Below are positions 4,192-56,910 of a stretch of DNA of 64,000 nt, piece by piece. A model generated the notes under the pieces. That model did no database searches. It was not told where the DNA came from and saw only the letters and a program-made list of their open reading frames with translations. The stretch is taken from contig JAOTYL010000001.1 in assembly GCA_029861865.1 (NCBI GenBank), positions 382,066 through 446,065 of the forward strand, written 5' to 3'. Each line of letters begins with the position of its first letter. The first letter of the stretch is position 1. This DNA comes from Myxococcales bacterium. Its GTDB lineage: Bacteria > Myxococcota_A > Polyangia > Polyangiales > Houyiibacteriaceae. Both the position numbers and the translations under genes were made by a program.

Positions 4192-4437
4192 GCGCAAAGT
4201 GTACGCCTCTCGCCAGGCGACTTCGCCGCTAGAGGTTCTGACGCAAAAGTTTCGCGCTTCGCTCAGTCCGAGTGTGGAGGAAGCGCCTTGGCGTGGAGGG
4301 CATCCTCTCTCCTCTGGATCCCCAAGATCCCCAAATTTCGCGATTGCCCAACACTTCTGCCCGGTGGGGTAGCGCTGGGGCCCTCGGCATCGTCAGAGTC
4401 GGCACGACCTTTGCTTTAAACAACGGCGGAGGGAGTG

Positions 4438-4770
4438 ATGACGACCAGAAAACTCGAACGTTCGGAGTGGGGAACATATTTTCACCGGGTCGCAAAGCGT
4501 CTGCCAACGATGCGTGTGGCGGTATCCGTGCTCGGCGCGGACATTGGAGTCCAACACGAGACCGAAGATAGTGCGCTGATCGGAATTACCTACGACCCCA
4601 AGGACGGCATCCTGGAGGTAGCGACGCCCAACATCACGCACCGAATAGCGAATCCCGAAGAAATCTACGTGCAAGAGAGCCTGGGAGAGCTTGCAAGCAT
4701 CGAGGTGATTGCACCGGACGGCACCAAGCAAATCATCGAGCTGAAGCCTCTCCCGGCGCTACCACCGTAG
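4438..4770 (+). CDS. DUF5335 family protein
   Basis: A 110-residue acidic soluble protein of the DUF5335 type: an N-terminal TRKLERSEWGTYFHRVAKRL segment and an LGADIGVQHE core. The fold and function are not established. Members are often found in Myxococcota and Actinobacteria next to unrelated genes. I chose ATG 4438 over the overlapping GTG at 4435 because GGAGG at 4428-4432 sits five bases before it. It is nine bases upstream of the FAH-family gene, so the two are probably cotranscribed. Confidence 0.7.
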   Translation: MTTRKLERSEWGTYFHRVAKRLPTMRVAVSVLGADIGVQHETEDSALIGITYDPKDGILEVATPNITHRIANPEEIYVQESLGELASIEVIAPDGTKQIIELKPLPALPP

Positions 4771-4779
4771 ACATTTCCA

Positions 4780-5757: not shown

Positions 5758-8492
5758 GCCGAACGATCCGAGCCATCCGGCAGTCGGCGCAAGGCGGACT
5801 GGGCCGCGCTCAGGCGCGCGACAGGGATTCGGTACGGAGAACAACTGACATAGTCGACACCGAGGTGGTCGCAAATGGCGATCGAAGCAGGGTCACCGCC
5901 GTGCTCGCCACACACTCCGGTTTTGATGTCGGGCCGGGTCTTTCGGGCCTCGGTGATGGCGAGGCTCATGATCTTGCCCACGCCGTGCTCGTCGAGAGTG
6001 GCGAAGGGATTCGTGGGAAGAATTCCATCGGTCAGGTAGCGATTGAGAAAGCCCGATTCGGCGTCGTCGCGACTCATGGCGAACGTAGTTTGGGTCAGGT
6101 CATTGGTCCCGAAAGAGAGAAATTCGGCATACTCGGCGATCTGATCCGCAGTCACTGCTGCCCGCGGCACCTCGACCATCGTGCCGAATTGGTATTTCAC
6201 CTCGACGCCTTGCTCCTCCATGACCGCGCGAGCCTCGGCTTCGAGCATGGAGCGCTGTACGCGAAGCTCGTTCGCGTGACTCGTTAGCGGAATCATGATC
6301 TCGGGAATTGCGATGACGCCGTCTTCGGCAACTTCGCAGGCCGCCTCGAAGATGGCCCGGACTTGCATCTTGCTAAGCTCTGGAATCAGGATCCCGAGCC
6401 GCACGCCACGAAGCCCGAGCATGGGGTTGCTCTCCCGCATTGACCCTACCTGATGCAGCATGGTCTGGGTCTCCCCGAGCTTCCCGGTGAGCTCTTCGAC
6501 CTCGTCGAGGGTTCGGGCGTTGATGGTCCGTATCTGAAGGTCGGCGAGCTGTCGTGTCAGATCCTCGAAGCTCGGCAAGAACTCGTGCAGTGGCGGATCG
6601 AGGAGACGAATGATCACCGGAAGGCCGTCCATGGCTTTGAACAAGCCTGCAAAGTCGGCCCTTTGAAACGGCAACAAAGCGTCCACCGCCTCGCGTCGTT
6701 CTGCGGGCGATTGAGTCGTGATGAGGCGCTGGACTATCGGCAATCGCTCCGGCTGGAAGAACATGTGCTCGGTGCGACATAGCCCAATACCCTCGGCTCC
6801 GTAGCGCCGGGCGCGCTCTGCGTCTTCCGGGTAGTCGGCGTTTGCGCGAACGCCGAGGCGCCGAAACTCGTCGGCCCAGCTCATCAGCTTCGACAGCCAG
6901 GGGTCCTCCATGTCGGGCACGACGGTCTCGAGCTGTCCGGCAAAAACCTCGCCTGTCGTGCCGTCCACCGAAATCCACTCGCCCTCTCGGACTTCGACAT
7001 CGCCTGCTTTCATGGTGCGTGCACGAAGATCGATGCTGACTTCGGAAGCGCCGACCACGGCCGGTTTACCGAACTGGCGCGCTACGAGCGCGGCGTGGCT
7101 GGTGCGACCACCGCTAGAGGTCAAAATACCCTGCGCCGCGAGCATTCCGTGCACGTCATCTGGTTTGGTCTCCGGGCGAACCAGCAAGACCGGACGCTTG
7201 TCGTTCGTGGCCCATCGCTCCGCCAGGTCGGGGTCGAATGCGACAACGCCGGTCGCAGCGCCGGGCGACACGTTGAGGCCATGCGCAATGACGTCGTGCC
7301 CTGCCTTCGCTTCTAGTGAAAACTGCGGATGCAAGAAGAACTCGACTTGTGTCGGCTCGACCCGCAAGACCGCCTCCTCACGACTCAGCAGGCCCTCCTC
7401 GGCCATCTCAACTGCAATGCGGACCGCGGCTTGGGCCGTCCGCTTTCCTGTTCGGGTCTGCAAAATCCACAGCGTGCCGCGCTCCACGGTGAACTCCATG
7501 TCTTGCATCTCGCGGTAGTGTCGCTCGAGGCGACGTGCGATTCCCTCGAACTGCGCATACGCCGCGGGCATTTCAGTGGAGAGCTGCTGCAACGGCTTCG
7601 TGGGTCGGGTGCCTGCTACGACATCTTCGCCCTGCGCATCGGTGAGGTAATCCCCTTCGAGGGTATTTTCGCCGCTTGTGGCGTTCCGGGACATCGCCAC
7701 GCCAGTCACCGACCCTTCGCCGAGGTTTCCGTACACCATCGTGACGACATTCACGCCCGTTCCGAGGTCGTGTGCAATGTTGGCGGCGTTGCGATAATCG
7801 CGCGCCCGCTTGCCATTCCAGCTGTCGAATACAGCTTGAGTCGCCATCCGTAGTTGGTCTTCTGCGTTGGTCGGAAACTCGATGCGCGCGTGCCTTCGGA
7901 CGATTTCCTTGAAGTCGTCTACGACTCCCCGGAAGTCGTCTCCGGTGAGGTCGCCGTCGCTCTTCACTCCGCGGCGTTCCCGGTGGCGGGCGAGCGCATC
8001 CTCGAAGGGCTCGTCTCGCACACCCAGAACGACCGTGCCGAACATTTGGATCAAGCGTCGGTATGAATCGAAAGCGAAGCGCTCGTTCCCGGTGAGCCGA
8101 ATCATCCCCTTGGTCACCTCGTCGTTGAGACCGAGATCGAGCACCGTGTCCATCATGCCAGGCATGGAGAACTTCGATCCCGAGCGACACGACACCAATA
8201 GCGGGCTTTCAGGGTCACCAAAGCGCTTGCCGGTCTTCTGCTCCATCTTTCGGAGCGCGGTCAAGACCTGTTCCCACAGGCCATCCGGGAGCTCGCCGCC
8301 GGCGGCAAGGTATGCATTGCAGGCCTCGGTGGTGATCGTGAAGCCCGGAGGGACCGGGACGCCGAGCCGCGCCATCTCGGCGAGGTTCGCTCCTTTTCCA
8401 CCGAGCAGACTGCGGACCCGGTCCCAATCGCCGTCGACCATCGCTTCCGCCTGATCGAGCTCATCGAGCGCATACACCCATTTCGTCGTCAT
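5754..8492 (-). CDS. ppdK: Pyruvate, phosphate dikinase
   Basis: 912 residues, normal length for bacterial PPDK, which interconverts pyruvate + ATP + Pi and phosphoenolpyruvate + AMP + PPi. The ATP-grasp domain opens with GGKGANLAEMARLGVPVPPG. The phosphohistidine swivel domain has GGRTSHAALVARQFGKP with the catalytic His. The PEP/pyruvate barrel ends with GVCGEHGGDPASI, which includes the catalytic Cys. ATG 8492 is chosen over the upstream GTG at 8510 because AGGAG lies just before it. The inorganic pyrophosphatase encoded at 62.6-63.1 kb would pull the gluconeogenic direction, but the genes are far apart. It converges on the FAH gene with a 4-bp overlap. Confidence 0.96.
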   Translation of the reverse strand: MTTKWVYALDELDQAEAMVDGDWDRVRSLLGGKGANLAEMARLGVPVPPGFTITTEACNAYLAAGGELPDGLWEQVLTALRKMEQKTGKRFGDPESPLLVSCRSGSKFSMPGMMDTVLDLGLNDEVTKGMIRLTGNERFAFDSYRRLIQMFGTVVLGVRDEPFEDALARHRERRGVKSDGDLTGDDFRGVVDDFKEIVRRHARIEFPTNAEDQLRMATQAVFDSWNGKRARDYRNAANIAHDLGTGVNVVTMVYGNLGEGSVTGVAMSRNATSGENTLEGDYLTDAQGEDVVAGTRPTKPLQQLSTEMPAAYAQFEGIARRLERHYREMQDMEFTVERGTLWILQTRTGKRTAQAAVRIAVEMAEEGLLSREEAVLRVEPTQVEFFLHPQFSLEAKAGHDVIAHGLNVSPGAATGVVAFDPDLAERWATNDKRPVLLVRPETKPDDVHGMLAAQGILTSSGGRTSHAALVARQFGKPAVVGASEVSIDLRARTMKAGDVEVREGEWISVDGTTGEVFAGQLETVVPDMEDPWLSKLMSWADEFRRLGVRANADYPEDAERARRYGAEGIGLCRTEHMFFQPERLPIVQRLITTQSPAERREAVDALLPFQRADFAGLFKAMDGLPVIIRLLDPPLHEFLPSFEDLTRQLADLQIRTINARTLDEVEELTGKLGETQTMLHQVGSMRESNPMLGLRGVRLGILIPELSKMQVRAIFEAACEVAEDGVIAIPEIMIPLTSHANELRVQRSMLEAEARAVMEEQGVEVKYQFGTMVEVPRAAVTADQIAEYAEFLSFGTNDLTQTTFAMSRDDAESGFLNRYLTDGILPTNPFATLDEHGVGKIMSLAITEARKTRPDIKTGVCGEHGGDPASIAICDHLGVDYVSCSPYRIPVARLSAAQSALRRLPDGSDRSA

Positions 8493-43141: not shown

Positions 43142-43212
43142 GCGTGTCCGTTAACGGCCATGCACGATGGCCGCGTGGCCCGTCCGTCACGACCCGCGTG
43201 TCCGTTAACGGC
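43142..43212. repeat. 17-bp direct repeat with CCGTTAACGG palindrome
   Basis: GCGTGTCCGTTAACGGC occurs at 43142-43158 and 43196-43212, each holding the 10-bp palindrome CCGTTAACGG. Between them GGCCAT-GCACG-ATGGCC forms a small hairpin. It lies upstream of the Ig-like lipoprotein gene and downstream of the next gene, so it could be operator sequence or part of the terminator region. Confidence 0.55.
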
Positions 43213-43244
43213 AAGGCCCGCGAACCGAAGCACGCGGGCCTTGC
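43211..43244 (-). terminator. Hairpin terminator of the first constant-domain lipoprotein gene
   Basis: Arms 43211-43222 and 43233-43244 (GCAAGGCCCGCG and its complement) give a perfect 12-bp stem and 10-nt loop. Read on the minus strand the loop contains CTTCGG, a stable tetraloop. It is 50 bp after the stop codon. The following sequence is not T-rich. Two related hairpins end the paralogous genes. Confidence 0.6.
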
Positions 43245-43293: not shown

Positions 43294-44133
43294 CTACGTG
43301 ATCGGGATGCAAACCTGACCCGCGGCCGCTTCTGGCGTGATGACCGCCGAACTCGCGTTGATGTCGACCTGGTTTGCCGGCTGGCAGTTGAACGCTGCCG
43401 GGATGAACGTCGGGCCACCATCGAGCTCGTTCACTGTAATGATGAAGTTCATCCCCGCCGCGTAGTTGAAGCATGCTTCGCCGGCTGCTCCCGCCGTGAA
43501 GCTGCCCGAGCCCGGCAAGACGGGAATCGCGAACGGCCCTGGAACGGTGTTGCCGTCTGAGTCCACATCCAAGTCGAGCGGAATGGTGTCCGCAGTCAGT
43601 TCGACATCGTCCCCGGTTGCACCGGAGAGGGCGGTGATGGGAAAGACGCCTCCCATGTTGACGGTTGCCTTGTTGAGGTCGGCCATCAGCGCCGCTTCCG
43701 CGCCCTGAATGAACGCCTCGCTCACGACCGCCTCACCCCAGAAGTCTGCGGTGAACGTGCTGTCTGCCGCCACCGTCTCGGGAGCGACATTCAAGATAAT
43801 CGCGAAGCCGAAGGTGTTGCCGAGCGCCGTACAACCGTAGTCGCAGTCGACGAGGTTTTCGGGTATCGCACAGGCCGGGTCTCCCTCGGCTTGGCCGTCG
43901 CAGCAGGTGTCCGCATTGCTCAAGCCCGCTGGCATGCCACCCGTGCCTCCGGTGCCTCCACCCGTGCCTCCAGTGCCACCAGTGCCACCGCCGACGCCCC
44001 CGGTTCCCCCGGTCGCCCCAGCGCCCCCGGTTCCACCGTCACCGCCGGTCCCACCTTCATCGTCTCCGCAGCCCATGCCCACCGCGAGGGCGAGCCCGAG
44101 TAGGCCAATCAAATTCCAATACGATCTATGCAT
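43294..44133 (-). CDS. Lipoprotein with Gly/Thr-rich linker and constant C-terminal domain (279 aa)
   Basis: Start ATG 44133 is favoured over 44139 because AAGGAG is seven bases before it. A lipobox (AVGMGC, Cys 22) is followed by a Gly/Thr/Ala-rich linker (residues 28-70) and a short Cys-rich piece (ADTCCDGQAEGDPAC). The C-terminal domain of about 190 residues starts at CDYGCTALGNTFGF and includes EAFIQGAEAALMADLN, DSDGNTVPGPF and GGPTFIPAAFNCQPAN. The last domain is shared with the genes at 44288 and 50555. I do not recognise it as a known family. It is the shortest member, nearly the bare domain. Confidence 0.78.
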   Translation of the reverse strand: MHRSYWNLIGLLGLALAVGMGCGDDEGGTGGDGGTGGAGATGGTGGVGGGTGGTGGTGGGTGGTGGMPAGLSNADTCCDGQAEGDPACAIPENLVDCDYGCTALGNTFGFAIILNVAPETVAADSTFTADFWGEAVVSEAFIQGAEAALMADLNKATVNMGGVFPITALSGATGDDVELTADTIPLDLDVDSDGNTVPGPFAIPVLPGSGSFTAGAAGEACFNYAAGMNFIITVNELDGGPTFIPAAFNCQPANQVDINASSAVITPEAAAGQVCIPIT

Positions 44134-44223
44134 CCTCATACTCCTTCGACTTCGGCCGACGACCCAATCGCCCCGCCGGAGGGGAGCTTAGCCTCAGGAG
44201 GTGGCGATAAGCAAGAACAGACA

Positions 44224-44253
44224 GAGACCCGCGAGCCGAGGCGCGCGGGTCTC
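44224..44253 (-). terminator. Hairpin terminator of the second constant-domain lipoprotein gene
   Basis: GAGACCCGCG (44224-44233) pairs with 44244-44253 around a 10-nt loop. On the minus strand the stem is followed by TGTCTGTTCTTGCTT, moderately T-rich. On the plus strand TTTTTT lies 12 bp after it. 34 bp downstream of the stop codon. Confidence 0.6.
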
Positions 44254-44287
44254 CCTGGACTGAGGTTTTTTGGGCCTCTTTATGCCA

Positions 44288-46729
44288 CTAGGGGATGGTG
44301 AAACAAACCTGACCAGCGGTCGGTTCAGGCGTGATGACCGCCGGATCCGCGTTGATGGCGACCTGATTGGCCGGCTGGCAGTTGAACGCTGCCGGGATGA
44401 ACGTGGGGCCGCCGTTGAGCTCGGTGACCGTCAAGACGAAGTTGATCCCAGTTGTGAGGTTGAAGCAGGCGGTGCTGCCGCTCGCTCCAAACGTGTACGT
44501 ATCCACGATCGGCACGAATGGAAGCGGGAACGGTCCTGGGACGGTGTTGCCATCCGGATCGAGATCCAAGTCCAGTGTGATCGCAGGCAGGGTTACGGTG
44601 GTGGGTCCTCCAGCGGTCGTACCCGAAAGGGCGCTGACCGGAAGCGTAGCGCCTGGGTTGACGTTTGCAGTGTTGAGGTCGGCCATCAACGCATCTTCGG
44701 CACCCGCGATGAACGCCTCGCTAATGACAAACTCACCATCGAAGGCGACCGCGGAGGCGCTGCCACCGGTGGTCGCATCGTCCGGATCCACATTCAAGAT
44801 GGCCGCGAAGCCGAACGTGTTCGCGAGAGCCGTACAACCGTAGTCGCAGTTGTCCGGCGCCGGGGCGATACCGTCGTCGCAGGTGAGCGCGTTGGTGAAA
44901 GGACCAAGAGACGTCGCCATGCAGGTGCCGCTACTACACAAGCCACTATCTGGACCGCCGCCCGCGTCGCAGGCGCTGTTGTCTGGATCATCGACGCCCT
45001 CGCACTCGCCGTTTGCGGGATTACACTCGTCGGTCACGCACTCGATGCCGTTGTCCGGACAGGTGACGTTGGCGCAAAGGGCGACGCACAGGCCGCTCTG
45101 GCAGGAGCCTGGAGTTCCGTCGGCATCGCATTCTACCCCATCTGCTCCGGGTTGCGTGACGCACATGCCGTCGGGGCAGGTGTTGACGGTGCAAACGTCA
45201 AAGTCGTCGCATTGGGCGTCCATGGTGCAGTCGGGTCCGTCGACACAGGTGCCGTCTTCGCAGACACCATCGTCGACGCCAACGAAGTCACACACCATGC
45301 CATTCACGACGTTCGCCTGACCGCACGTGTTGGTGTCGCAGGCGGCCGTCGTGCACTCGTTGCTGTCATCGGGGCACTGGGTTCCGTCGTTGCACTCGAC
45401 GCAGGCGCCTTGACCGTCACATACGCCGTCAGCACAGGGCTCGTTGATTGCGATGTCGCCGCCGCCCTCACATACCCCGTTGCTCGGGTTGCAGGTGCCG
45501 CCGTCGACGCAGTCGTTGCCCGAGTCACAGTTGACGTCGACGCACTCGTCCCCGACTTCGCACACGCCGCCCACGCAAACGCCCGTATCGTCGTTGCAGG
45601 TTGTTTGGTCTGGGACGTTCATCAGGTCGCACATGCCGGTCTGGCTATTGCAGACCTCGACCGTGCAGTCGTTCATGGTGTCGTCACAGGTGACGGTGTC
45701 GCAAGGGTCTTCTTCGATGCAGGTGCCACCCATGCAGGCTCCACCATCGCCACACGGCGTGCCTTCGGCGACATTCGAGGTTTCGCACAAGCTGGTGTCA
45801 GGGTTACACGCCGCCGTGGTGCACTCGTTGCCGGTGTCTTCGCAGACGACATCCATGCAAGGGTCCTCCTTGGGGACGCACTCACCACCCATGCACATCC
45901 CGGCGCCACCGTCGCAGTCGGTGTTGTCGGGCACGTTCGAGGTTTCGCACAAGCCGGTGCCTGGGTTACATGCCGCGGTGGTGCATTCGTTGCCGGTGTC
46001 TTCACAGATCACCTTGTCGCAGGGGTCCCCATCGCCCGCCACGCAGGTCACGGGGAAGTCGAGCATGTCCATGCAGTAGGTGCCGCCGTCGTCGGTCACC
46101 AGGATGAAAATCACGTCGTCCCCGACGTCGGTGCAGGTATAGGTCGTCGACTGGGCCATCGGGTTGGCGATGATGCCGCTGCCCGAGCTCCACATGTAGG
46201 TGATCGTGTCGCCCTCATCGTCGTCCTTCGCCGTCGCGGAAAGATCGATATCGTTGCCGACCGAAGTCGTCATAGGCGATACATCGGCCCAGTCGATGTA
46301 GGGGCAGATGTTGAACTCGCCGTTGACCCGCACGCCGCCGAACTGTGGCGGCAGCTTGCAGTTTATGATGACGCTCACCACGGTCACTTCGGCGACCTTG
46401 ATGTCGAACATCGTCGAGCCCTTGCAGGTCGTCTCCTTATCGGTGGACACCGCTTCGAGCGTGATCGTGTAGCCATCCCCCGGCTCGAGCCCATACGCTT
46501 CGACCGAAGCCGTCGCTCCGTTGGCGCTAGTGTTGATGGTGCCCGATTTGATCTCCTCGCCTCCGCGGGTGATCGACCATTGCACCTCATCGATCTCGGT
46601 GTCGCCATTGATAACGAGGTCGAGCGAGAGCGAGCCGGACTCGCCCTGGGTGTCGGTCGCGCAGCCAAACGCGGTAAGAGCGCCGCAAACGATGAAAACG
46701 AGCCAACGCATAGAAAGGGAACCGGGCAT
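44288..46729 (-). CDS. Large Cys-rich lipoprotein with constant C-terminal domain (813 aa)
   Basis: Lipobox AFGC (Cys 23) with GAGGAGG before the ATG. Residues about 30-220 form beta-rich segments (VNGEFNICPYIDWADVSP; VGNDIDLSATAKDDDEGD). Residues about 230-610 hold many Cys-rich repeats of the form CEDTGNECTTAACNPGTGLC and CxGGxCV, an EGF-like spacing that predicts many disulfides. The constant domain (CDYGCTALANTFGF to the end) follows. Probably a surface or secreted protein. The cysteine-rich part could bind ligands or other cells, which is inference. The reverse strand has a long open frame that is only a shadow. Confidence 0.8.
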   Translation of the reverse strand: MPGSLSMRWLVFIVCGALTAFGCATDTQGESGSLSLDLVINGDTEIDEVQWSITRGGEEIKSGTINTSANGATASVEAYGLEPGDGYTITLEAVSTDKETTCKGSTMFDIKVAEVTVVSVIINCKLPPQFGGVRVNGEFNICPYIDWADVSPMTTSVGNDIDLSATAKDDDEGDTITYMWSSGSGIIANPMAQSTTYTCTDVGDDVIFILVTDDGGTYCMDMLDFPVTCVAGDGDPCDKVICEDTGNECTTAACNPGTGLCETSNVPDNTDCDGGAGMCMGGECVPKEDPCMDVVCEDTGNECTTAACNPDTSLCETSNVAEGTPCGDGGACMGGTCIEEDPCDTVTCDDTMNDCTVEVCNSQTGMCDLMNVPDQTTCNDDTGVCVGGVCEVGDECVDVNCDSGNDCVDGGTCNPSNGVCEGGGDIAINEPCADGVCDGQGACVECNDGTQCPDDSNECTTAACDTNTCGQANVVNGMVCDFVGVDDGVCEDGTCVDGPDCTMDAQCDDFDVCTVNTCPDGMCVTQPGADGVECDADGTPGSCQSGLCVALCANVTCPDNGIECVTDECNPANGECEGVDDPDNSACDAGGGPDSGLCSSGTCMATSLGPFTNALTCDDGIAPAPDNCDYGCTALANTFGFAAILNVDPDDATTGGSASAVAFDGEFVISEAFIAGAEDALMADLNTANVNPGATLPVSALSGTTAGGPTTVTLPAITLDLDLDPDGNTVPGPFPLPFVPIVDTYTFGASGSTACFNLTTGINFVLTVTELNGGPTFIPAAFNCQPANQVAINADPAVITPEPTAGQVCFTIP

Positions 46730-46983
46730 GAGAGCCTCCTCAAAAGGGGGTGGGGCGATATCTACAAATGGGGGAAAGCGAAGCTACCATCGAACGAATG
46801 CGCCGTTCAAGACCCTTAACCCTGGTTCGAACAACGTAATGATTTCTGTGTGTTGTAACTCACAACCGCAATCCTCGGCCCGGGCGTCGTGGCCTGATGT
46901 CGGCTTGAATTCTGCGGCGAAACCGCAAGACTTCCGGCTTTGGGCCAACGGCCCCAACCCGCACGATTTGGAGAGCGCCCGAG

Positions 46984-47613
46984 ATGAACCATCCAGCCAC
47001 TTACGTCACCAAGACTTTCTTTTTTACCGCATGCCTCGTGCTCGGCTGCTCGAGCGGCGGAACGCTCGGCTGCGGCAGCAGCGAGGAAGCAGGGCCCGAG
47101 GTCGACTCCGAGCTGACCGGAATCTACCAGATCAACACCTACCAGAGCGATCTAGAGGGCTGCGACCAGGCGGCGGATGCTGATCCCCCTGGCCAGCGTC
47201 TGGTCCTCTACGGCTTTTCTCCCGACGACGATCCGCAGGCGGTGTTTCTCGGCGGGGTCTTCTGTAACGAGCTCGAGGATTGCCGCGACGTCGCGAAACG
47301 AGCGCCCGAGCCCATCGTCGGTTACGCGTTCCGAAGTGGAGACGACGCATCGGGCTGGGTGGGCTTTGCAGTCTCGGGAACCGGGCTCGCGAATGATCAG
47401 TGCCAAGCCGATGTGCAGGAGCACGCTCTTACCGCAACCAGCGGCGGGACGATCGCCGTCGAAACACAAACGTTCGAAACCGTGTTCCCTCCGATCGAGA
47501 TGGACGGCACCAACATCACCTGTCGCAACGGCGATGCGCTTGCCGCGCTGACGGACGACCTGCCCTGTACAGCGACCTTCCTCGTGGAAGCGACGCTCGA
47601 AGCGAGCCTCTAG
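46984..47613 (+). CDS. Hypothetical lipoprotein, 209 aa
   Basis: Signal peptide with lipobox VLGC (Cys 22) and a Ser/Gly-rich start of the mature protein (SSGGTLGCGSSEEAG). The body is beta-rich with eight Cys (CDQAADAD, FCNELEDCRDV, DQCQADVQEH, ITCRNGD, LPCTATF). It carries a lipocalin-like 'TGIYQINTYQSDLEGCD' opening. No family recognised. The only plus-strand gene in the 41.6-53.8 kb lipoprotein cluster. The 254-bp upstream has no clear promoter motif. Confidence 0.65.
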   Translation: MNHPATYVTKTFFFTACLVLGCSSGGTLGCGSSEEAGPEVDSELTGIYQINTYQSDLEGCDQAADADPPGQRLVLYGFSPDDDPQAVFLGGVFCNELEDCRDVAKRAPEPIVGYAFRSGDDASGWVGFAVSGTGLANDQCQADVQEHALTATSGGTIAVETQTFETVFPPIEMDGTNITCRNGDALAALTDDLPCTATFLVEATLEASL

Positions 47614-47634
47614 CCTCTGAAGCCCTGTCGCGCG

Positions 47635-49335
47635 CTACTCGAATCGGTTTGTGCGCACCCATTGGCTGCCCGAGATGTTGTGTAGCCACACCGCATGGGC
47701 GTGGCGGTTGTCATCGACCACGACCTTCGGGAGCCTGGCGGCTCGTTCGGTGTCTTCGATGCGCTCGGTACGCATGGGCATCCAGCTCATCTCTACCGGG
47801 TCGCGGCGGTTGGACCAAACGCTAACCCAATCCTGCCAGACCTGAGTCCAGACCACGAACACGTTGCCATCGGCGTTGACGCCCACGCGTGGGGTCTCCG
47901 CATCACCGTCTTCGTCGGGCTCTTCGTTGGGCGGCTCGATGAGCTCGGGCGTGCCCCAGCCGGAGCTGTACTGGTTGGCATAGATATTCTCGAAGTCGGG
48001 GGTCAGGTCTTGGTCGGCCTGTGACCAGACCGCGTGGGCAATACCCATTCCGTCGACCGCCACGTCAGGCTGTTTCTTGTTGCCGGCGTCGTAGTCATCG
48101 ATCCGCTCCGGAGCTTCCCAACCGGAGGCCGAAAAACGAACGCCCCAGATGTCGTCGCGCGCGTCTTGGTTCTGAACCCAGACCACGAATGCGTCTCCGT
48201 TCGGTCCGACCGAGAGTCGCTCGTCGCGCGCGCGCGTCTCCGGATCGGGTTTGATCAGCCCAGCGTCTCCCCAACCCACACCGGCCACGTAGCGATTCGC
48301 CCAAAGCACCTCGCCTCGGCCGCCGCCGCTCGGGACGGTTTGCCGCGCCCATACCGCAATGGCATTGCCGCTATCGTCCATGCCCAGCGAAATCTTCTCG
48401 CCCACCGTCGGAGTCGGTATGGGATCGATCGATTCAGCGAGGCCCCAGCCTGAACCCGGCTCATACCGGTTGGCCCACACGACCCGATTGGGACTATCCA
48501 TATCTCGCTGCACCCAAACCGCGATGGCGTTGCCCGCCGGGTCGGCCGCGACGGAAGGGCTTCGCGCGTTCGTGCTCTCGTCGACGTTTTGGAGGAGGAC
48601 AGGGGTCCCCCAGCCTTCACCGACCACGTAGCGGTTGGTCCAAATGTTGTTCAGGGCCGCCGCGACACTCTGCTGCCATACCGCAAAGCCGTTCCCCGCA
48701 TCGTCGGTGGCCAGCCGCGGATTGGACGAAGGTTGATTTCCATCATCGATCGGCTCCGGTTCCCCCCAAAGGAAGACCCTGGTATAGCGGTTGGCCCAGA
48801 TGCGCGTTCCAGCGGGCTCGGTGTATTCCCAGACCGCAATAGCATCGCTCTGCGCGTCAACCGCGATCTGGTGCTGGTCGGAGGTTCCAGTCCCGACAAA
48901 CTCGAGCCAATCGTCCTTGCCCCACGCGCTATCGAGGGTGGTGAAATCCCATTCGAAGTCCTTGTCGAGCGTCGCTCCGCCCGAGGAGGCGAGCCCGGTC
49001 GTAATGGTGGCAGTGAAGTCGGTGATCACCGAGAGAGGGTCGTCAGGGATCAACACCGCCACGTCCGGCTCCTCGTCGTCGAACTCGAAGGTGCCCTGTA
49101 TCCGTGTGCCTTGCGAATCGGTCACGAAGAAGGTGTCGTTCGTGAGGGTCTCGCGATCGATGTTGGCGTTGATCCGAAACCCGATGCGTGTATCGACCTG
49201 GACATCCGTCCGTCCTTCTTCGGGCGATGTCTCGAGCACCATGATGAACGCGACGTCGCCTCCGCCTTTGCAGGCGTATCCAAGCGACAGCAATCCAACG
49301 AGCATGAATGCATAAGCTAACCAACGGGATTTCAT
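47635..49335 (-). CDS. Lipoprotein with Ig-like domain and WANRY beta-propeller-like repeats
   Basis: 566 residues. Lipobox LGYAC (Cys 22). Residues 30-135 fit a bacterial Ig-like (Big_5) domain (VLETSPEEGRTDVQVDTRIG; GTFEFDDEEPDVAVLIPDD). The rest is seven or eight repeats of about 55 residues with [IVL]WANRY..G.GWG.....I and DxxGNAIAVW.Q phrases, likely a beta-propeller. This repeat type is common in myxobacterial and other delta-proteobacterial secreted proteins, with no enzymatic role established. Confidence 0.75.
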   Translation of the reverse strand: MKSRWLAYAFMLVGLLSLGYACKGGGDVAFIMVLETSPEEGRTDVQVDTRIGFRINANIDRETLTNDTFFVTDSQGTRIQGTFEFDDEEPDVAVLIPDDPLSVITDFTATITTGLASSGGATLDKDFEWDFTTLDSAWGKDDWLEFVGTGTSDQHQIAVDAQSDAIAVWEYTEPAGTRIWANRYTRVFLWGEPEPIDDGNQPSSNPRLATDDAGNGFAVWQQSVAAALNNIWTNRYVVGEGWGTPVLLQNVDESTNARSPSVAADPAGNAIAVWVQRDMDSPNRVVWANRYEPGSGWGLAESIDPIPTPTVGEKISLGMDDSGNAIAVWARQTVPSGGGRGEVLWANRYVAGVGWGDAGLIKPDPETRARDERLSVGPNGDAFVVWVQNQDARDDIWGVRFSASGWEAPERIDDYDAGNKKQPDVAVDGMGIAHAVWSQADQDLTPDFENIYANQYSSGWGTPELIEPPNEEPDEDGDAETPRVGVNADGNVFVVWTQVWQDWVSVWSNRRDPVEMSWMPMRTERIEDTERAARLPKVVVDDNRHAHAVWLHNISGSQWVRTNRFE

Positions 49336-49407
49336 AAGACCTCCTGAACGCTAGTGATAACACAGCTCTAGAGCCGACGCATTCGCCCAACTGGTTACGC
49401 GGGCCGC

Positions 49408-50418
49408 TCAGGGACGGCTCTTTCGCTCGCCGGGGATCGTGAGCGTTCGGCGCGTGATCGTCCTGCTCTTTACGATCTTCTGTTCGAACTCGTATTCCAT
49501 CTCTTTGGTGACCGACAATGTCATCTTGCCCGAGCGGGGGACGAGCCGTGTCGGGTCCCATGTGACCTTTCCGCTGCCTTCGGCGGCGAACTCGGTCAGC
49601 TCGGCGTCGATGGGGCTTCCAGGGTTTCGAAAGTTTTGCGGCGCGGCGCTTTGCTGAACCTTGGTTTTGAGGGTGACGAGCTGCTTTCGCAGCTTGGTGA
49701 GCTGGAACTTGGACACCTCGCTAGCATCGACGCCGTCTTGCTCGACACCGCGCTCGATCGTCCACTTTGCACCGGTCCCGATCGGTTTTTCAGGAAACGG
49801 TGCCGAAAGCTGGCGGAGGGCCCACTCGAGATCACCCGAGATTCCCCAGAGCTCGCGCGATGCGTCAGAAGGCAGGTCGATAACGACCTCTTCGACCGTC
49901 CCGAGCGAGTCGATTCGATAGGTCCCCCCGAACCCCTTCATCGCTGCCACAGCCTCCTTTCGTGCTTCGAGGGCTTTCGGAGGAGTCTTCGCTGTGTCCA
50001 GGAGGCGTGCCTCATCGACGGTGAAGGAGACGACGCGGGGCCCCTCGCCGCCACCTTCCTCGGTCTGCAGGGTGAGCTCAAAGGCCACCGACCGTGGCGC
50101 TTGCTTGGCATTGAGCACGACCATGACTGCCTCGAGCTCGGTATCGACCCGCATCGTAAGCCGCTCTTTTTGCCCCGCTTCGATGCTCCAGCGAAGCGCA
50201 CGTCGCGGCTTCTTACCTGGCTTCACCAGTTTGAGGGTGGGTGGTGCCGTCTCCGAGGGTTCCGCTGTGGGTTCCGATGTCGGCTCGCCAGGCGCGGTCG
50301 GCGCCTCGTTTGCATCTCGGGGCGTTTCCGTCGCCGGCGCCTCCTCGGTGGACGCGGACTCCTCGTTGTTGCATCCAGCCAGACTGATCGCGATGAGTAA
50401 GATGATCGACCAACGCAT
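49408..50418 (-). CDS. Lipoprotein, DUF6263-like
   Basis: 336 residues with lipobox SLAGC (Cys 15), a low-complexity Glu/Pro/Thr stretch (residues 20-60), then a beta-rich domain (LRWSIEAGQKERLTMRVDTE; IDSLGTVEEVVIDLPSDAS; TWDPTRLVPRSGKMTLSVT). Overall it resembles DUF6263 lipoproteins. The function is not known. The Pro/Glu-rich stretch would act as a tether from the membrane. Confidence 0.65.
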   Translation of the reverse strand: MRWSIILLIAISLAGCNNEESASTEEAPATETPRDANEAPTAPGEPTSEPTAEPSETAPPTLKLVKPGKKPRRALRWSIEAGQKERLTMRVDTELEAVMVVLNAKQAPRSVAFELTLQTEEGGGEGPRVVSFTVDEARLLDTAKTPPKALEARKEAVAAMKGFGGTYRIDSLGTVEEVVIDLPSDASRELWGISGDLEWALRQLSAPFPEKPIGTGAKWTIERGVEQDGVDASEVSKFQLTKLRKQLVTLKTKVQQSAAPQNFRNPGSPIDAELTEFAAEGSGKVTWDPTRLVPRSGKMTLSVTKEMEYEFEQKIVKSRTITRRTLTIPGERKSRP

Positions 50419-50492
50419 CGGCCTTCCTTATCACAACCATTGACTCGCCGCTTGCCGGTTTTTTCGATGGTGTCGGCAACTTAAACGAGAAA

Positions 50493-50516
50493 ACCCGCGA
50501 GCCGAAGCCCGCGGGT
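50493..50516 (-). terminator. Intrinsic terminator of the third constant-domain lipoprotein gene
   Basis: ACCCGCG (50493-50499) pairs with 50510-50516. On the minus strand the loop reads GGCTTCGGCT and the stem is followed by TTTCTCGTTTAAG, a good T-rich tail. It lies about 40 bp after the stop codon at 50555. Stem and loop sequence match the terminators at 43211 and 44224. Confidence 0.8.
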
Positions 50517-50554
50517 CTCTCTGGATTCAAGCTCGAAGAGCTTGGTCTATCCCA

Positions 50555-52783
50555 CTAGGGGACCGTGAAGCAAACCTGGCCAGCAATCGGGTCCGGCACG
50601 ATGACCGCGGGGGTCGCGTTGACCGCTATCTGGTCTGCCGGCTCGCAGTTGAACGCTGCCGGGATGAACGTCGGGCCGCCATCGAGCTCCGTCACCGTGA
50701 TGACGAAGTTGATGCCTGCCGTGAGGTTGAAGCAGGCGGTGCTGCCGCTTGCGCCATAGGTGTAGACACCGCTGCCCGGCACGAACGGAAGCGGGAACGG
50801 CCCTGGAACGGTGTTTCCATCGGTGTCCAGATCCAGGTCGAGGATCGTTCCGCCCGGTAGGGTCAGGTTGGTCGGTCCTCCGGTGGTCGTGCCGTCGATG
50901 GCGGCGACCGGAAGGACAGCTCCTGCGTTGACGCTTGCCGTATTGAGGTCAGCCATCAGTGCCGCTTCGGCACCCGCGATGAATGCCTCGCTCACGACGA
51001 AGAAGCCATCGAAGTCGACGTTGAACGCGCCGCCTCCTACGGTTCCGTCATCCGGATCGACGTTCAAGACCGCCGCGAACCCGAACGAGTTGCCAAGCGC
51101 CGTACAACCGTAGTCACAGTCGACTGGGGGTGGTTGAATCCCGTCGTCGCAGGTGAGTGAGTTGGTGAACGGACCAAGCGTGCTGTCCTCACAAACGCCA
51201 GCGTTGCAGGCGCAGGGAGGTCCGCTCGGACACGTGTCGCACGAGTTGGTGTCGTCGTTGACCGGCGTCGGGCAGGTACCCGGGAACGTGCTGTTGTCAC
51301 ACGCCGGATCGTCGGTGCACTGGTTGCCGTCGTCGCAAACGACGCCGGTGCAGTTGTCTTGACAGGAGCCGCCCTGGCAGGTTCCGGTGCCACCAGCACA
51401 AGGTGTGTCGTTAGCGACAGCAACCTCAGCCAGCGTACAAGTGCCTGCGACACAGGAGCCCGCGGGTGCTTCCGTGCACTCGTTGCCATCCGTGTTGCAG
51501 TCCGGATTGTCGTTGTTGCAGCCCTGCGGCACGCAGGTGCCTGCGCCGTCACACAAGCCCGGCTGGGGCGCGAAGTCGTCGCAGGACGTGCCCGACGGAA
51601 GGTTGCTCGTCACGCATACCGCCGACCCCGACGAGTCGTCGCATGCGCCTGATTCGCAGCTTCCGAGGCCAACCGTGCAGTCAGGCGGCGGAGGTGTCGC
51701 AGCCGGATCGCAAGGCGATAGGCCCGGACAATCGATCGAAACGACTTTGGTCTTATCGCAGTCGTTGTCGCCGTCGGTCGTGACCGCCGTGCAGGTGATG
51801 GTCGCACCCGGAACACCGGCCGGATCACAAGCGACGTAGAAGCCGCCTGCATTTGGACCAGGACCACCGACCGCAACGGGAACCGGAGGCTGGTCGCCAA
51901 CGATGCCGAGCGTATCGCCATTAAAGACGCAGGAGGCGTCCGGAATGAGGTCGCCCTCGCAGTCGAGCAGCGCGTTGGCGCCACAAGTGATGGTGGTGGT
52001 CGGTGCGGTCGGGCAGGTATCTGGGCCGCCGGGCGGAGAGCACGCCGGGTAGCAAGTAAGCCCTTCTGGCGTGACGTCGCACATCTGCGGGTCACAGCCC
52101 TCGCCGCAGGTGCTGTCACCGTCGCGGAAGCGAACCTCGCAGGACGTCGCCGAAATCGGAACGCCAAAGAATGGCGGCTCCGGAGCGCTGTCGAGACAGT
52201 TGAGCTGGAAGAGGTCGGGGCAGAAGTTACCGACGACGAAGGAGAACGTGGCGTCCACGTCGAGCATGCCGACAGGAGCCTGGTAGCTCACTTGACAGAT
52301 CAAGACGAGGTTGACCTTCACCGTGGTGTCCGCGGCGATGGTCACGTCTTCCTGAGCGGTACAAATAACCTCGCCGTCGTTGTCACGCGCGCGAAGTTGC
52401 ACGGTGCAGTCTCCGGGCGGCAGGTCCATGAAGGCTTGCCAGATCTCGGCTCCGTCGCCGGGGCGCGGTGAGCCGAACTCGGGCGGGATGGGGCCCTGCG
52501 GGTCGGTCCGGCCATCCTGAACCTCGAGGTTACCATTGATCTGGACCTCGTCGGGGAAGCTGGCGCCGTTGTCGAGGAAAACATCACTGTTTCCAAGACA
52601 GTTGATGGTGTACTCGACATCTTGGATGTCGACTGGGGCCGGCACACCAGGGCTCGACTCATTGTTCGGAACAATGACGTTCAGCTCGGTGTTGTTCGCT
52701 GTACCGCCCTCGCCGCTCGTACAAGCTGCGACGGCGCTCATACAAGCGAGCACGACCCATGGGGTAAATCGTCTCTTATTCAT
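50555..52783 (-). CDS. Large Cys-rich lipoprotein with constant C-terminal domain (742 aa)
   Basis: Lipobox AVAAC (Cys 21), GGAG before the ATG. A first part of about 140 residues resembles that of the 44288 gene (DLPPGDCTVQLRARDNDGEV; ADTTVKVNLVLICQVSYQ). Next come Cys-rich repeats (CSPPGGPDTCPTAPTTTITC; GLCDGAGTCVPQGCNND; CTGVVCDDGNQCTDDPAC). The constant domain begins at CDYGCTALGNSFGF. The same three-part plan as its paralogue 4 kb away shows descent by duplication with heavy divergence in the middle. Confidence 0.8.
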   Translation of the reverse strand: MNKRRFTPWVVLACMSAVAACTSGEGGTANNTELNVIVPNNESSPGVPAPVDIQDVEYTINCLGNSDVFLDNGASFPDEVQINGNLEVQDGRTDPQGPIPPEFGSPRPGDGAEIWQAFMDLPPGDCTVQLRARDNDGEVICTAQEDVTIAADTTVKVNLVLICQVSYQAPVGMLDVDATFSFVVGNFCPDLFQLNCLDSAPEPPFFGVPISATSCEVRFRDGDSTCGEGCDPQMCDVTPEGLTCYPACSPPGGPDTCPTAPTTTITCGANALLDCEGDLIPDASCVFNGDTLGIVGDQPPVPVAVGGPGPNAGGFYVACDPAGVPGATITCTAVTTDGDNDCDKTKVVSIDCPGLSPCDPAATPPPPDCTVGLGSCESGACDDSSGSAVCVTSNLPSGTSCDDFAPQPGLCDGAGTCVPQGCNNDNPDCNTDGNECTEAPAGSCVAGTCTLAEVAVANDTPCAGGTGTCQGGSCQDNCTGVVCDDGNQCTDDPACDNSTFPGTCPTPVNDDTNSCDTCPSGPPCACNAGVCEDSTLGPFTNSLTCDDGIQPPPVDCDYGCTALGNSFGFAAVLNVDPDDGTVGGGAFNVDFDGFFVVSEAFIAGAEAALMADLNTASVNAGAVLPVAAIDGTTTGGPTNLTLPGGTILDLDLDTDGNTVPGPFPLPFVPGSGVYTYGASGSTACFNLTAGINFVITVTELDGGPTFIPAAFNCEPADQIAVNATPAVIVPDPIAGQVCFTVP

Positions 52784-53988: not shown

Positions 53989-56910
53989 GTGCGCGCGTTC
54001 GTTCTTTTGTCGACAACTGCCATAGCTTTCGCCATCGCCCTGATGCAAGCTGCGACGGCGTCGGCCCAGTTACCCAACTATACGCTTTTCGAAGCCGACC
54101 CGGTTACTCCGATCGCGCTTTCCCCCGATGGGAGTCGCCTTCTCGCCGTCAACACGGCAGATGGTTATCTGGAGGTGCTTTCGCCTACGGCGACCGGCGC
54201 AGTGCTGAAGCTGGCCTCGGTTCCGGTCGGGCTCGAACCGATCTCGGTTGCCTTCCGCAACAACACCGAGGCTTGGGTGGTCAATCACCTCTCGGACAGC
54301 GTCAGCATCGTCGACCTGTCACTTGCCCCGCCCCGTGTCGTTCGCACGCTCTTGGTGGGTGACGAGCCGCGGGGGATCGTGTTCGCGGGACCGGGGGGCA
54401 ATCGGGCGTTCATCGCGACCGCACATCGCGGTCAAAACACCCCTTGGCCAGACGGCGACTACGACGTGCCGGGGACCGGCCGCGCCGATGTGTGGGTCTT
54501 CGACGCAAACAGTCTAGGCACCTCCCTTGGAGGCACACCGCTCACGGTCATTCAGCTCTTCGGCGACAGGCCTCGTGCCCTGACCGCCTCTCCTGACGGC
54601 TCGACGGTCTATGCGGCGGTGTTTCGTTCGGGCAACCGCACCGTTCCGATCAGCGAAGGCGTGGTCTGCGATGGGGCGGCGGTCAATTGCACAGTGCAGG
54701 GCACGGTCTATCCCGCGGGGCGTCCGGAACCAAGAGTTGGCCACTGCAGTAACAACCTCGGGACCGCCTGCGTAACCAATGGCGATTGCTCCGGCGGCGG
54801 CAGCTGCGTGAGCCGGGAGACCGGTATCATCGTTGGCTTCAACGACCTCACCGGAAACTGGGAAGACGAGACGGGCACGAACTGGAACGCCGCCGTCCGT
54901 TTTTCCCTTCCCGACCTCGACGTCTTCGAGATCGATGCCAATGCGCCGACGCCAGTCGAAACCGATGCGTTTTCGGGTGTTGGCACGGTTCTTTTCAACA
55001 TGATCGTCAACCCGGCGAACGGAAACCTCTACGTCACCAACACCGAGGCCAACAACCGAGTTCGCTTCGAGGGTTTTGGCGACTACGCCTCGACTTGGCC
55101 CAAGACGCCGGGCGAGCCAGCGTCGGTGCGGGGCAACCTGCATCGAGCGCAGATCACGGTCATCAATACCGCAGGCAACGTGCTCCCACGCCACCTCAAC
55201 AAGCACATTCCGTACGGGGTGAGCCCCGTCCCGGCAGGGGTCAAAGAAAAGAGCGTGGGCACGCCTCTTCAAATGGCCGTGAGCGGTGACGGCACGACCC
55301 TGTACGTCGCCGGTTTTGGGTCCAACGCGGTCGCGGTCTACGACACCACAGAGCTCGAAAACGACACCTTCGTGCCCGATGCGGCAGACCTGATTCCGAT
55401 CACGGGTCCGAGCGGGCTGGCGTTGGATGAAGCCCGTGGGTTTCTTTGGGTGTCCAGCCGTCGCACCAACGACGTCTCTTTCATCGACCTCGCCACCGGC
55501 GCGGTGGACACCGCGATCAGCCTTTACACCCCCGAGTCGATCCAACTCGAGGCGGGCAGGGCGTTCTTGTATGATACCCAGCTCACCTCCAGCAACGGCG
55601 AGGCCTCGTGCAGCAGTTGCCACATCTTTGGGGACATGGATGACCTCTCCTGGGATCTCGGGGATCCGGATGCCGTTGCCTTCCCGAATCCAAACCCGCC
55701 AGCGTCGGACCCAGCATTTCCAAACCTGAACTTCTTGCCCCCGCTCCAACCCTTCGATTCAAGCAAGGGGCCGATGACAACGCAGAGCCTTCGCGGGATG
55801 GCCAACCATGGGCCGATGCACTGGCGAGGCGATCGCACCGGCGGCGCGACCGGGGGGGATCCCCTCGACGAGAACGCGGCGTTTCTGGCCTTCAATGTCG
55901 CGTTTCCCGGCTTGATCGGAAGGGACGAGGGCGAGTTGGTAGCGGGCGCCATGCAGGCGTTTGCTGATTTCGCGCTGCGACTCACCTATCCACCAAACCC
56001 GATTAGGGCCTTGGACAATTCGCTGAGTGGGTCCCTCGACGATCCTGTCACAGGGGCTGCAGCCGGCGAGAGCCTCTACAACGGTCCGATCACCGACACG
56101 GTCGCTAACTGCAATGGCTGCCATAAGCTCAACCGCAACTTGGGGTTTTTCGGCTCCGCAGGCGAGTCGACCTTCGAAAATGAGGCGATGGAGTTTAAGG
56201 TCCCGCACCTGCGCAACGCCTATCAAAAGGTGGGCATGTTTGGTCAGCCGCCCACCAACTTCTTCCCCAATGCCGACGGGACGTTTATGGGGGACCAGGT
56301 CCGCGGGACAGGTTTCCTCCATGACGGCAGCGTTTCGACAGTGGCCAATTTCACGGGGGCAGGGGTCTTCAGTACGAACAGCACGCAGGAGGCCCAGCTA
56401 GAGGCCTTTATGATGGAGTTTGACAGCAACCTTGCGCCGATCGTCGGTCAGCAGATCACGGTGACCGCAGGCAGTAGCACGGATGTGCTCGACCGCGTCG
56501 GTCTGCTGATCGCGCGCGCCGACGAGACGTATTATACGAGCCCCACGGACGGCGCCGTCCCGGAATGCGACCTGATCGTCAAGGGCGCGGTCGATGGGAA
56601 GCAGCGCGGATGGTTCTACATCGGCGGCAACACCTTCGAGGCCGACACCACGCTGGAGGGTAGCTGGACCACGAGCCAGCTTCTGACCGAAGCCGCGCAG
56701 GCGGGGCAGCACCTCACGTTCACCTGCGTTCCCCCGGGTTCGGGCAGACGGATGGGCATCGATCGCGATGCGGACAACACACTGGATGGCCAGGACAGTC
56801 TCACGTGCTCGGCAAGCCTCGGGGCTTCGCCGCGTGGCGGCCCGGTTGCCGTGGTGTTTCTGATGATGATCGCCGGGCTGGCGGCGCGCAGGCTCCGGCG
56901 GCGGACGTAA
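53989..56910 (+). CDS. Beta-propeller/di-haem (MauG-like) secreted protein with C-terminal sorting-like tail
   Basis: 973 residues from GTG 53989, preceded by GGAGG. Signal peptide (about residues 1-27). N-terminal YVTN-type beta-propeller repeats (PDGSRLLAVNTADGYLEVL; NGNLYVTNTEANNRVRF; GTTLYVAGFGSNAVAVYD) extend to about residue 520. A cytochrome c peroxidase/MauG-like half follows, with CSSCH, LRGMANHGPMHWRGDRTGG, CNGCH and GFLHDGSV. The end (LTCSASLGASPRGG, a hydrophobic segment, then RRLRRRT) resembles MYXO-CTERM-type membrane sorting tails. Probably an envelope-attached electron-transfer or oxidase protein; its substrate is unknown. Confidence 0.82.
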   Translation: MRAFVLLSTTAIAFAIALMQAATASAQLPNYTLFEADPVTPIALSPDGSRLLAVNTADGYLEVLSPTATGAVLKLASVPVGLEPISVAFRNNTEAWVVNHLSDSVSIVDLSLAPPRVVRTLLVGDEPRGIVFAGPGGNRAFIATAHRGQNTPWPDGDYDVPGTGRADVWVFDANSLGTSLGGTPLTVIQLFGDRPRALTASPDGSTVYAAVFRSGNRTVPISEGVVCDGAAVNCTVQGTVYPAGRPEPRVGHCSNNLGTACVTNGDCSGGGSCVSRETGIIVGFNDLTGNWEDETGTNWNAAVRFSLPDLDVFEIDANAPTPVETDAFSGVGTVLFNMIVNPANGNLYVTNTEANNRVRFEGFGDYASTWPKTPGEPASVRGNLHRAQITVINTAGNVLPRHLNKHIPYGVSPVPAGVKEKSVGTPLQMAVSGDGTTLYVAGFGSNAVAVYDTTELENDTFVPDAADLIPITGPSGLALDEARGFLWVSSRRTNDVSFIDLATGAVDTAISLYTPESIQLEAGRAFLYDTQLTSSNGEASCSSCHIFGDMDDLSWDLGDPDAVAFPNPNPPASDPAFPNLNFLPPLQPFDSSKGPMTTQSLRGMANHGPMHWRGDRTGGATGGDPLDENAAFLAFNVAFPGLIGRDEGELVAGAMQAFADFALRLTYPPNPIRALDNSLSGSLDDPVTGAAAGESLYNGPITDTVANCNGCHKLNRNLGFFGSAGESTFENEAMEFKVPHLRNAYQKVGMFGQPPTNFFPNADGTFMGDQVRGTGFLHDGSVSTVANFTGAGVFSTNSTQEAQLEAFMMEFDSNLAPIVGQQITVTAGSSTDVLDRVGLLIARADETYYTSPTDGAVPECDLIVKGAVDGKQRGWFYIGGNTFEADTTLEGSWTTSQLLTEAAQAGQHLTFTCVPPGSGRRMGIDRDADNTLDGQDSLTCSASLGASPRGGPVAVVFLMMIAGLAARRLRRRT

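What the first reader, a model, noticed from the sequence alone, without database searches (positions are those of the whole stretch)
43294..52783. New-looking constant C-terminal domain (about 190 aa) shared by three modular lipoproteins
The genes at 43294, 44288 and 50555 end in the same domain (CDYGCTAL.N.FGF, EAFI.GAE.ALMADLN, DGNTVPGPF, GPTFIPAAFNC). The parts before it differ: a short Gly/Thr linker in one, long divergent Cys-rich repeats in the other two. This constant-plus-variable plan suggests a display or secretion domain carrying variable cargo, such as recognition or adhesion proteins. I do not recognise the domain.
Basis: partly seen in the sequence, partly recalled or inferred. 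Interest (0 to 1): 0.7.

Follow-up and report, generated by a model that had tools for sequence, protein, structure and literature searches.

The report
Swappable heads on bacterial surface lipoproteins
Three neighbouring bacterial lipoproteins do share a new end domain, but comparison with sister species shows that the stalks are the constant part and the shared end domain is an exchangeable head, replaced in all three genes in a close relative.

Summary
Confirmed: genes 43294-44139, 44288-46729 and 50555-52783 (- strand) end in one ~205-aa domain (61-78% identical); a fourth copy lies on another contig. It matches no Pfam, NCBIfam, PADLOC or PHROG family. In Myxococcota, homologues turned up in one genus only.

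Between species the signal peptide, N-terminal module and Cys-rich stalk are conserved and the end domain changes. In sister species G018 (RpoB 97.6%) the 44288 orthologue keeps a 74-76% identical scaffold, yet all three genes end in a different domain (type D). In G005 and G013 they end in a third form (type C). At the unlinked fourth locus, 10 of 12 readable genomes carry another, Cys-rich head; two carry type A.

Some heads are more alike within a genome than between orthologues (84-88% against 51%, G005/G013), which indicates intragenomic recombination. The N-terminal module of the 50555 gene is homogenised the same way.

Best reading: outer-membrane lipoprotein scaffolds with exchangeable, probably Ig-like, heads. 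Exchange is well supported; an adhesion or recognition role is inference. SitA-like toxin delivery and TraA-like self-recognition are rivals. Matching of heads is not universal.

The parts
43294..44139 (-). P0001: lipoprotein = signal peptide with Cys24, Gly/Thr linker, type A head
   Evidence: orthologues in G018, G005, G013 with other heads
43930..44067 (-). P0001 Gly/Thr linker (residues 25-70), conserved between species (76% to G018 over 38 aligned residues)
43297..43929 (-). P0001 type A head (residues 71-281)
   Evidence: 30% to G018 head
44288..46729 (-). P0002: lipoprotein = signal peptide with Cys23, N2 module (Ig/PKD-like), Cys-rich stalk, type A head
46040..46660 (-). P0002 N2 module (residues 24-230), in 18 of 19 genomes of the genus, with many different C-termini
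44909..46039 (-). P0002 Cys-rich stalk (residues 231-607), 74% to G018, 50% to G005
44291..44908 (-). P0002 type A head (residues 608-813); replaced by type D in G018 and type C in G005 and G013
50555..52783 (-). P0003: lipoprotein = signal peptide with Cys21, N3 module, Cys-rich stalk, type A head
51722..52720 (-). P0003 N3 module (residues 22-354); 67-69% to G001/G013/G016, 90% to a paralogue on own contig C18
51179..51721 (-). P0003 Cys-rich stalk (residues 355-535)
50558..51178 (-). P0003 type A head (residues 536-742); type D in G018, type C in G013 and G016
41602..43233 (-). P0004: neighbouring lipoprotein of repeated Ig-like units; conserved marker of the locus (70% to G018, 56-58% to G005, G013, G004). 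True start is probably nearer 43044
47635..49335 (-). intervening gene (Big_5 domain), 57% identical to the gene in the same place in G018
49408..50418 (-). intervening lipoprotein-like gene; only 33% identical to the gene in the same place in G018

Best explanation
The shared domain is an exchangeable extracellular head. Each protein is exported as a lipoprotein (lipobox-like Cys seen; localisation inferred), held in the outer membrane, and carries its head on a constant scaffold: a Gly/Thr linker (P0001), an N2 Ig/PKD module plus Cys-rich stalk (P0002), or N3 plus Cys-rich stalk (P0003). Heads are replaced as units at the linker or stalk boundary (shown by comparison of genomes). A lineage tends to copy one head type into several scaffolds (shown for G000, G018, and in part for G005 and G013), probably by gene conversion between paralogues (inferred for heads; best shown for the N3 module). 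The head core is probably an Ig-like beta-sandwich (low-confidence model). Most likely it binds something outside the cell (a surface, polymer, prey or neighbouring cell), and head turnover reflects selection on that binding (inferred).
For: Same locus in sister species: P0002 73/76/74% identical in signal peptide/N2/stalk but 26% in the head; DNA identity falls from about 0.8 to about 0.45 exactly over the two heads and recovers between and after them. All three G018 genes carry type D, 65-67% identical to each other; type D is in 1 of 19 genomes. At the P0005 locus the signal peptide stays (up to 84%) while the head is type A in 2 and E-like in 10 of 12 readable genomes. G005/G013: P0002 heads 51% between orthologues but 84% and 88% to another lipoprotein of the same genome, with stalk 80% and P0004 85%; in-genome head dS 0.46 and 0.37 against stalk dS 0.64. 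N3 of P0003 and the C18 paralogue 0.95-0.99 DNA identity over codons 41-200 ending abruptly at the stalk, though the paralogues predate the G000/G018 split. N2 and N3 carry other C-termini: Exo_endo_phos, IgGFc_binding, DUF11. Ig-like models.
Against: Function is untested. Matching is not general: P0001 heads of G005 and G013 are a separate subtype (C2, 84% orthologous) unlike the P0002 heads (C1), and G016 P0003 has a C2-like head. Type B and one type C head are ordinary orthologues between G000 and G018 (68% and 88%). Type A heads of G000 are 60-78% identical with dS 0.64-0.75, so not recently converted. dN/dS of heads 0.13-0.50 shows no positive selection. Some A-D pairs are weakly similar (z up to 7.2), so very fast divergence is not wholly excluded. 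Models have pLDDT 59 and 62. G018 P0003 is read only from the end of N3 because its contig starts there.
Confidence: 0.55

Rival explanations
1. Polymorphic lipoprotein toxins working like SitA: the N-terminal module escorts a variable C-terminal toxin to neighbours by outer membrane exchange, and a neighbouring gene gives immunity.
For: Lipoprotein N-terminus, conserved N-terminal module and swapped C-terminus, as described for SitA escort and toxin domains (PMC8546572, passages). One N3 paralogue ends in an Exo_endo_phos domain.
Against: No toxin-family match for heads A, C or D. The gene after P0002 is a lipoprotein with the same head, the next is lipoprotein P0004, and the gene after P0003 is another lipoprotein-like gene; gaps of about 60-150 bases leave no room for an immunity gene. 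Several genes of one genome carrying one and the same head is unlike a toxin repertoire.
Confidence: 0.1
2. Self-recognition or compatibility system: heads bind each other or one shared partner, so all scaffolds of a lineage must carry the same head type; TraA-like logic spread over several genes.
For: A,A,A plus unlinked A in G000; D,D,D plus unlinked D in G018; C1,C1,C1 in three lipoproteins of G013. TraA specificity lies in a variable domain next to Cys-rich repeats (PMC13184517, passages).
Against: P0001 heads in G005 and G013 do not match the others; G018 and G000 keep further heads of types B and C; neutral gene conversion alone gives within-genome similarity, as seen for N3.
Confidence: 0.13
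3. Neutral process only: frequent gene conversion between paralogous surface genes plus fast divergence; the matching of heads has no function.
For: Homogenisation also affects N3, which is not the head; Cys and Gly repeats give many sites for recombination; no positive selection seen.
Against: Non-homologous or barely homologous heads (A, D, E-like) replacing each other at one site is more than homogenisation; orthologous B, C2 and other heads of the same genomes stayed 68-88% identical.
Confidence: 0.19
4. One reading: a constant C-terminal display or secretion domain carrying variable cargo.
For: Within this one genome the C-terminal domain is the shared part.
Against: Between genomes the N-terminal parts are conserved and the C-terminal domain is replaced; N2 occurs in 18 of 19 genomes with other C-termini; an N-terminal lipid anchor already fixes the protein.
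Confidence: 0.03

Closest known systems
SitA lipoprotein toxins of myxobacteria (sitBAI)
   Same: lipoprotein; conserved N-terminal part; exchangeable C-terminal domain (PMC8546572 and PMC5562445, passages and abstract)
   Different: no adjacent immunity gene, no toxin family match, the same head repeated in several genes of a genome; Cys-rich stalks
TraA kin-recognition receptor
   Same: variable domain combined with Cys-rich repeats on the surface of Myxococcota (PMC13184517, passages)
   Different: the proteins here end in the head and start with a lipobox-like Cys; no C-terminal sorting tag; no sequence relation was tested
Concertedly evolving surface adhesins such as Helicobacter pylori Bab and Hom
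   Same: paralogous surface proteins homogenised within a genome (seen in a search listing only; details recalled)
   Different: here unrelated scaffolds exchange a whole C-terminal domain, and different head types replace each other between sister species
PDB 3lso, membrane-anchored Ig-like protein of Corynebacterium diphtheriae
   Same: best structural match of the type A model: Z 9.0, rmsd 4.1, 143 aligned; next row 6.8; its domains are called Ig-like in PMC10034466 (passage)
   Different: 6% identity and a low-confidence model; for the type C model arrestins come first (Z 6.3) and 3lso has Z 4.9

Membership tests
SitA polymorphic lipoprotein toxins | lipoprotein with conserved N-terminal part and polymorphic C-terminal domain | tested here: met
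   (lipobox judged by eye; P0001 and P0002 have non-canonical residues at -3)
SitA polymorphic lipoprotein toxins | C-terminal toxin domain | tested here: inconclusive
   no Pfam or PADLOC match for the heads; absence of a match does not exclude toxicity
SitA polymorphic lipoprotein toxins | cognate immunity gene next to the toxin gene | tested here: not met
   next genes are lipoproteins; gaps of about 60-150 bases
SitA polymorphic lipoprotein toxins | transfer by outer membrane exchange (TraA/TraB) | not tested
TraA receptors | variable domain plus Cys-rich repeats | tested here: inconclusive
   the plan is similar, no sequence comparison with TraA was made
TraA receptors | C-terminal MYXO-CTERM sorting tag | tested here: not met
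   the four type A proteins end with the head, with no membrane helix or Arg-rich tail (by eye)
Pfam DUF6801 (PF20611) | match to the family profile | tested here: not met
   0 matches in the own genome at E<=10; no Pfam match for heads
Ig-like beta-sandwich domains | Ig-like sandwich fold | tested here: inconclusive
   AlphaFold2 pLDDT 59 and 62; Foldseek nothing at E<=0.001; VIA best Z 9.0 to 3lso

The most novel reading that the evidence does not exclude
A multi-gene compatibility code: several outer-membrane lipoproteins with unrelated stalks display one matched head type per lineage (A, D or C1). Heads bind each other or one shared partner, so a new head brought in by recombination has to be spread to every scaffold, and head type decides which cells or surfaces are accepted.
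Probability: 0.13. Interest if true: 0.85.

Novelty: new variant of a known kind. Interest (0 to 1): 0.55.

Why it matters
Replacement of the head in three linked genes (with an unlinked fourth copy in each genome) between sister species is a natural experiment on how bacteria renew surface proteins. It gives defined loci and breakpoints with which to ask whether matched heads are selected or a by-product of gene conversion. It also brings several undescribed head types and two scaffold families (N2, N3) that carry many different cargoes in an uncultured genus of Myxococcota.

Tried and rejected
Known-family searches: Pfam, NCBIfam, PADLOC and PHROGs gave nothing for the domain (PHROGs only two weak partial matches at E 0.029 and 0.043). 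PDB sequences gave only chance-level matches, best E 0.5. DUF6801, which I recalled as similar in pattern, was tested and not found. BFVD gave nothing at E<=0.001. The first genome-contig scan with the type A alignment confirmed no relative; the second, with P0004, found four named records. A paper search for those four record prefixes found none. Paper searches for this kind of system found no description of it: Myxococc, lipoprotein, gene conversion, polymorphic; SitA; concerted evolution terms.

Rejected: a constant C-terminal sorting domain (contradicted by G018); recent duplication of the three genes (their scaffolds differ and A-head dS is 0.64-0.75); mis-assembly as the cause (the G000 genes lie together on a 736-kb contig, the G018 P0002/P0001/P4 genes on a 195-kb contig). 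Discarded rows: the two P0004 rows used a wrong frame; correct values are. At the P0005 locus 14 loci were examined; G006a and G011 end before the head, and the 59-residue G015 hit was not read, so 12 count.

Not settled: homology of type A and type D (hhalign 1.2%; shuffles mixed); type D against C (hhalign 50%). Type D was sought only in the 19 genomes of the genus and type C in 115 genomes. Restriction to one genus is best tested for types A and B: 377 genomes drawn evenly from the phylum, up to 8 first-look candidates scored in each.
Full report
The observation. The genes at 43294-44139 (P0001, 281 aa), 44288-46729 (P0002, 813 aa) and 50555-52783 (P0003, 742 aa), all on the minus strand, end in one domain of about 205 residues. 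Pairwise identity is 62-78% and no shuffle reaches the scores. The genome holds a fourth copy on contig C23 (P0005: signal peptide, Gly/Thr linker, head). Pfam, NCBIfam and PADLOC give nothing for it.

Distribution. With an alignment that includes a diverged relative, 5 of 377 genomes sampled over the phylum match, all in one genus out of 234. Type A itself occurs in the window's genome (4 copies) and in G012 (1 copy). Two relatives were found by profile: type B, the head of short lipoproteins in G001, G018 and G000:C15, and type C (11 of 115 genomes, 1 of 57 genera). Types A/B against type C give hhalign 95.6%, E 1e-8. That the lineage is Myxococcota is inferred from the record titles of four members of the genus ('Myxococcales' or 'Deltaproteobacteria' MAGs).

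The decisive comparison. The block P0003 ... P0002 - P0001 - P0004 is conserved in G018; G005 and G013 keep P0002 - P0001 - P0004, and parts are seen in G004, G016 and G001. G018 is the closest relative by RpoB (97.6% over 1152 residues). Its P0002 is 73%, 76% and 74% identical in signal peptide, N2 and stalk, and 26% in the head, no better than an unrelated C-terminus aligned the same way (23%). Along the DNA, identity is about 0.8 through the stalk, about 0.45 over the head, about 0.7 over the signal peptide and linker of P0001, about 0.45 over its head, and 0.72-0.83 beyond. All three G018 genes end in a new head, type D, 65-67% identical to the first. Type D is absent from the other 18 genomes of the genus; its fourth G018 copy sits on an N-terminus resembling, by eye, that of a G005 protein with two type C domains. 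In G005 and G013 the P0002 and P0001 orthologues carry type C heads. The G013 P0002 is cut at its contig start and was assigned by stalk and neighbours.

The fourth locus. The gene after a conserved 676-aa outer-membrane-protein-like gene has the same kind of signal peptide and Gly-rich linker in 12 readable genomes. The head is type A in G000 and G012 (58% over 151 aligned residues) and a Cys-rich E-like domain in the other ten (42-65% to the G005 one). In the RpoB tree G012 groups with G016, G017 and G007 and not with G000 (support 0.93), so heads at this locus do not follow the species tree.

How the exchange looks. In G005 the P0002 head is 84% identical to that of another lipoprotein of the same genome, in G013 88%, while the two P0002 heads are 51% identical although stalk (80%), P0004 (85%) and P0001 (83%) are close. 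In-genome head dS is 0.46 and 0.37, below the 0.64 of the stalk: homogenised after the split. Type A paralogues have dS 0.64-0.75 and type D paralogues 0.71-0.85, like the G000-G018 orthologous modules (0.40-0.71), so those spreads date from around that split. The process is not limited to heads. N3 of P0003 and of a paralogue on contig C18 that ends in an Exo_endo_phos domain (E 1.8e-9) are 0.95-0.99 identical in DNA over codons 41-200, 0.72-0.89 up to codon 363, and then fall to 0.39 at the stalk. Both paralogues exist in G018 too (Exo_endo_phos ends 82% identical), yet N3 ends are 98% and 100% identical within genomes and 62% between. Gene conversion between paralogues explains this best.

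Results against a simple story. P0001 heads of G005 and G013 (subtype C2) are orthologous at 84% and do not match the C1 heads of P0002; G016 P0003 carries a C2-like head. Type B and one type C head are normal orthologues between G000 and G018 (68% and 88%). Head dN/dS is 0.13-0.50, no sign of positive selection by this crude measure. Some A-D pairs are weakly similar. One intervening gene is only 33% identical between G000 and G018. G018 P0003 is seen only from the end of N3, its link resting on about 40 residues and on the neighbouring genes.

What the head may be. AlphaFold2 on 8 sequences gives a beta-sandwich with a helix after the second strand (pLDDT 59, pTM 0.56). The type C model starts with a similar order of elements (pLDDT 62). 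Foldseek finds nothing at E<=0.001. VIA-align ranks 3lso, an Ig-like bacterial surface protein, first at Z 9.0; for type C, arrestins come first at 6.3. This favours a binding role over an enzyme, weakly.

Mechanism and comparison. Shown: conserved scaffolds, replaced heads, sharp boundaries, within-genome homogenisation. Inferred: surface display, gene conversion as the agent for heads, adhesion or recognition as the function. The logic resembles SitA lipoprotein toxins (escort domain plus polymorphic C-terminus; PMC8546572, passages), but the adjacent immunity gene of that system (PMC5562445, abstract and passages) was looked for and not seen. It also resembles TraA (variable domain with Cys-rich repeats; PMC13184517, passages) without its C-terminal tag. 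Long-lasting concerted evolution in prokaryotes is described as rare (PMC6053082, abstract).

Verdict. The most interesting feature, head types changing in step in several genes, could not be seen from the window alone.

Noticed in passing
window 53989-56910 (+): 973-aa protein with lactonase-like propeller and di-haem peroxidase-like (CCP_MauG) matches and a Cys-hydrophobic-Arg tail resembling MYXO-CTERM (recalled, by eye); relatives lie next to this locus in G001 and G018.
   Followed up: partly
L128 (G000:C18:136001-148000) 4225-7260 (-): Paralogue of P0003 with a nearly identical N3 module but an Exo_endo_phos C-terminus; its counterpart in G018 starts contig C22 with the same DNA that starts contig C24, an assembly break at a homogenised repeat.
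   Followed up: yes
L143 (G017:C861), L133 (G017:C101), L136 (G010:C176), L129 (G000:C6): The N2 module is a genus-wide scaffold (18 of 19 genomes) with very different C-termini: IgGFc_binding, alpha/beta-hydrolase-like, DUF11 and unassigned ones.
   Followed up: partly
L158-L169, gene after the 676-aa OMP-like gene: An E-like Cys-rich head of about 130 aa ending in CSGLP..., with no Pfam match in the two tested, is the usual head at the P0005 locus.
   Followed up: partly
L111 8800-10407 and L113 1402-2940: Standalone lipoproteins with very long GGMAGA-type linkers before a type C head.
   Followed up: no
window 47635-49335 (-): Lipoprotein-like protein with a Big_5 domain followed by repeats with the look of a beta-propeller; conserved between P0003 and P0002 in G018 (57%).
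   Followed up: partly
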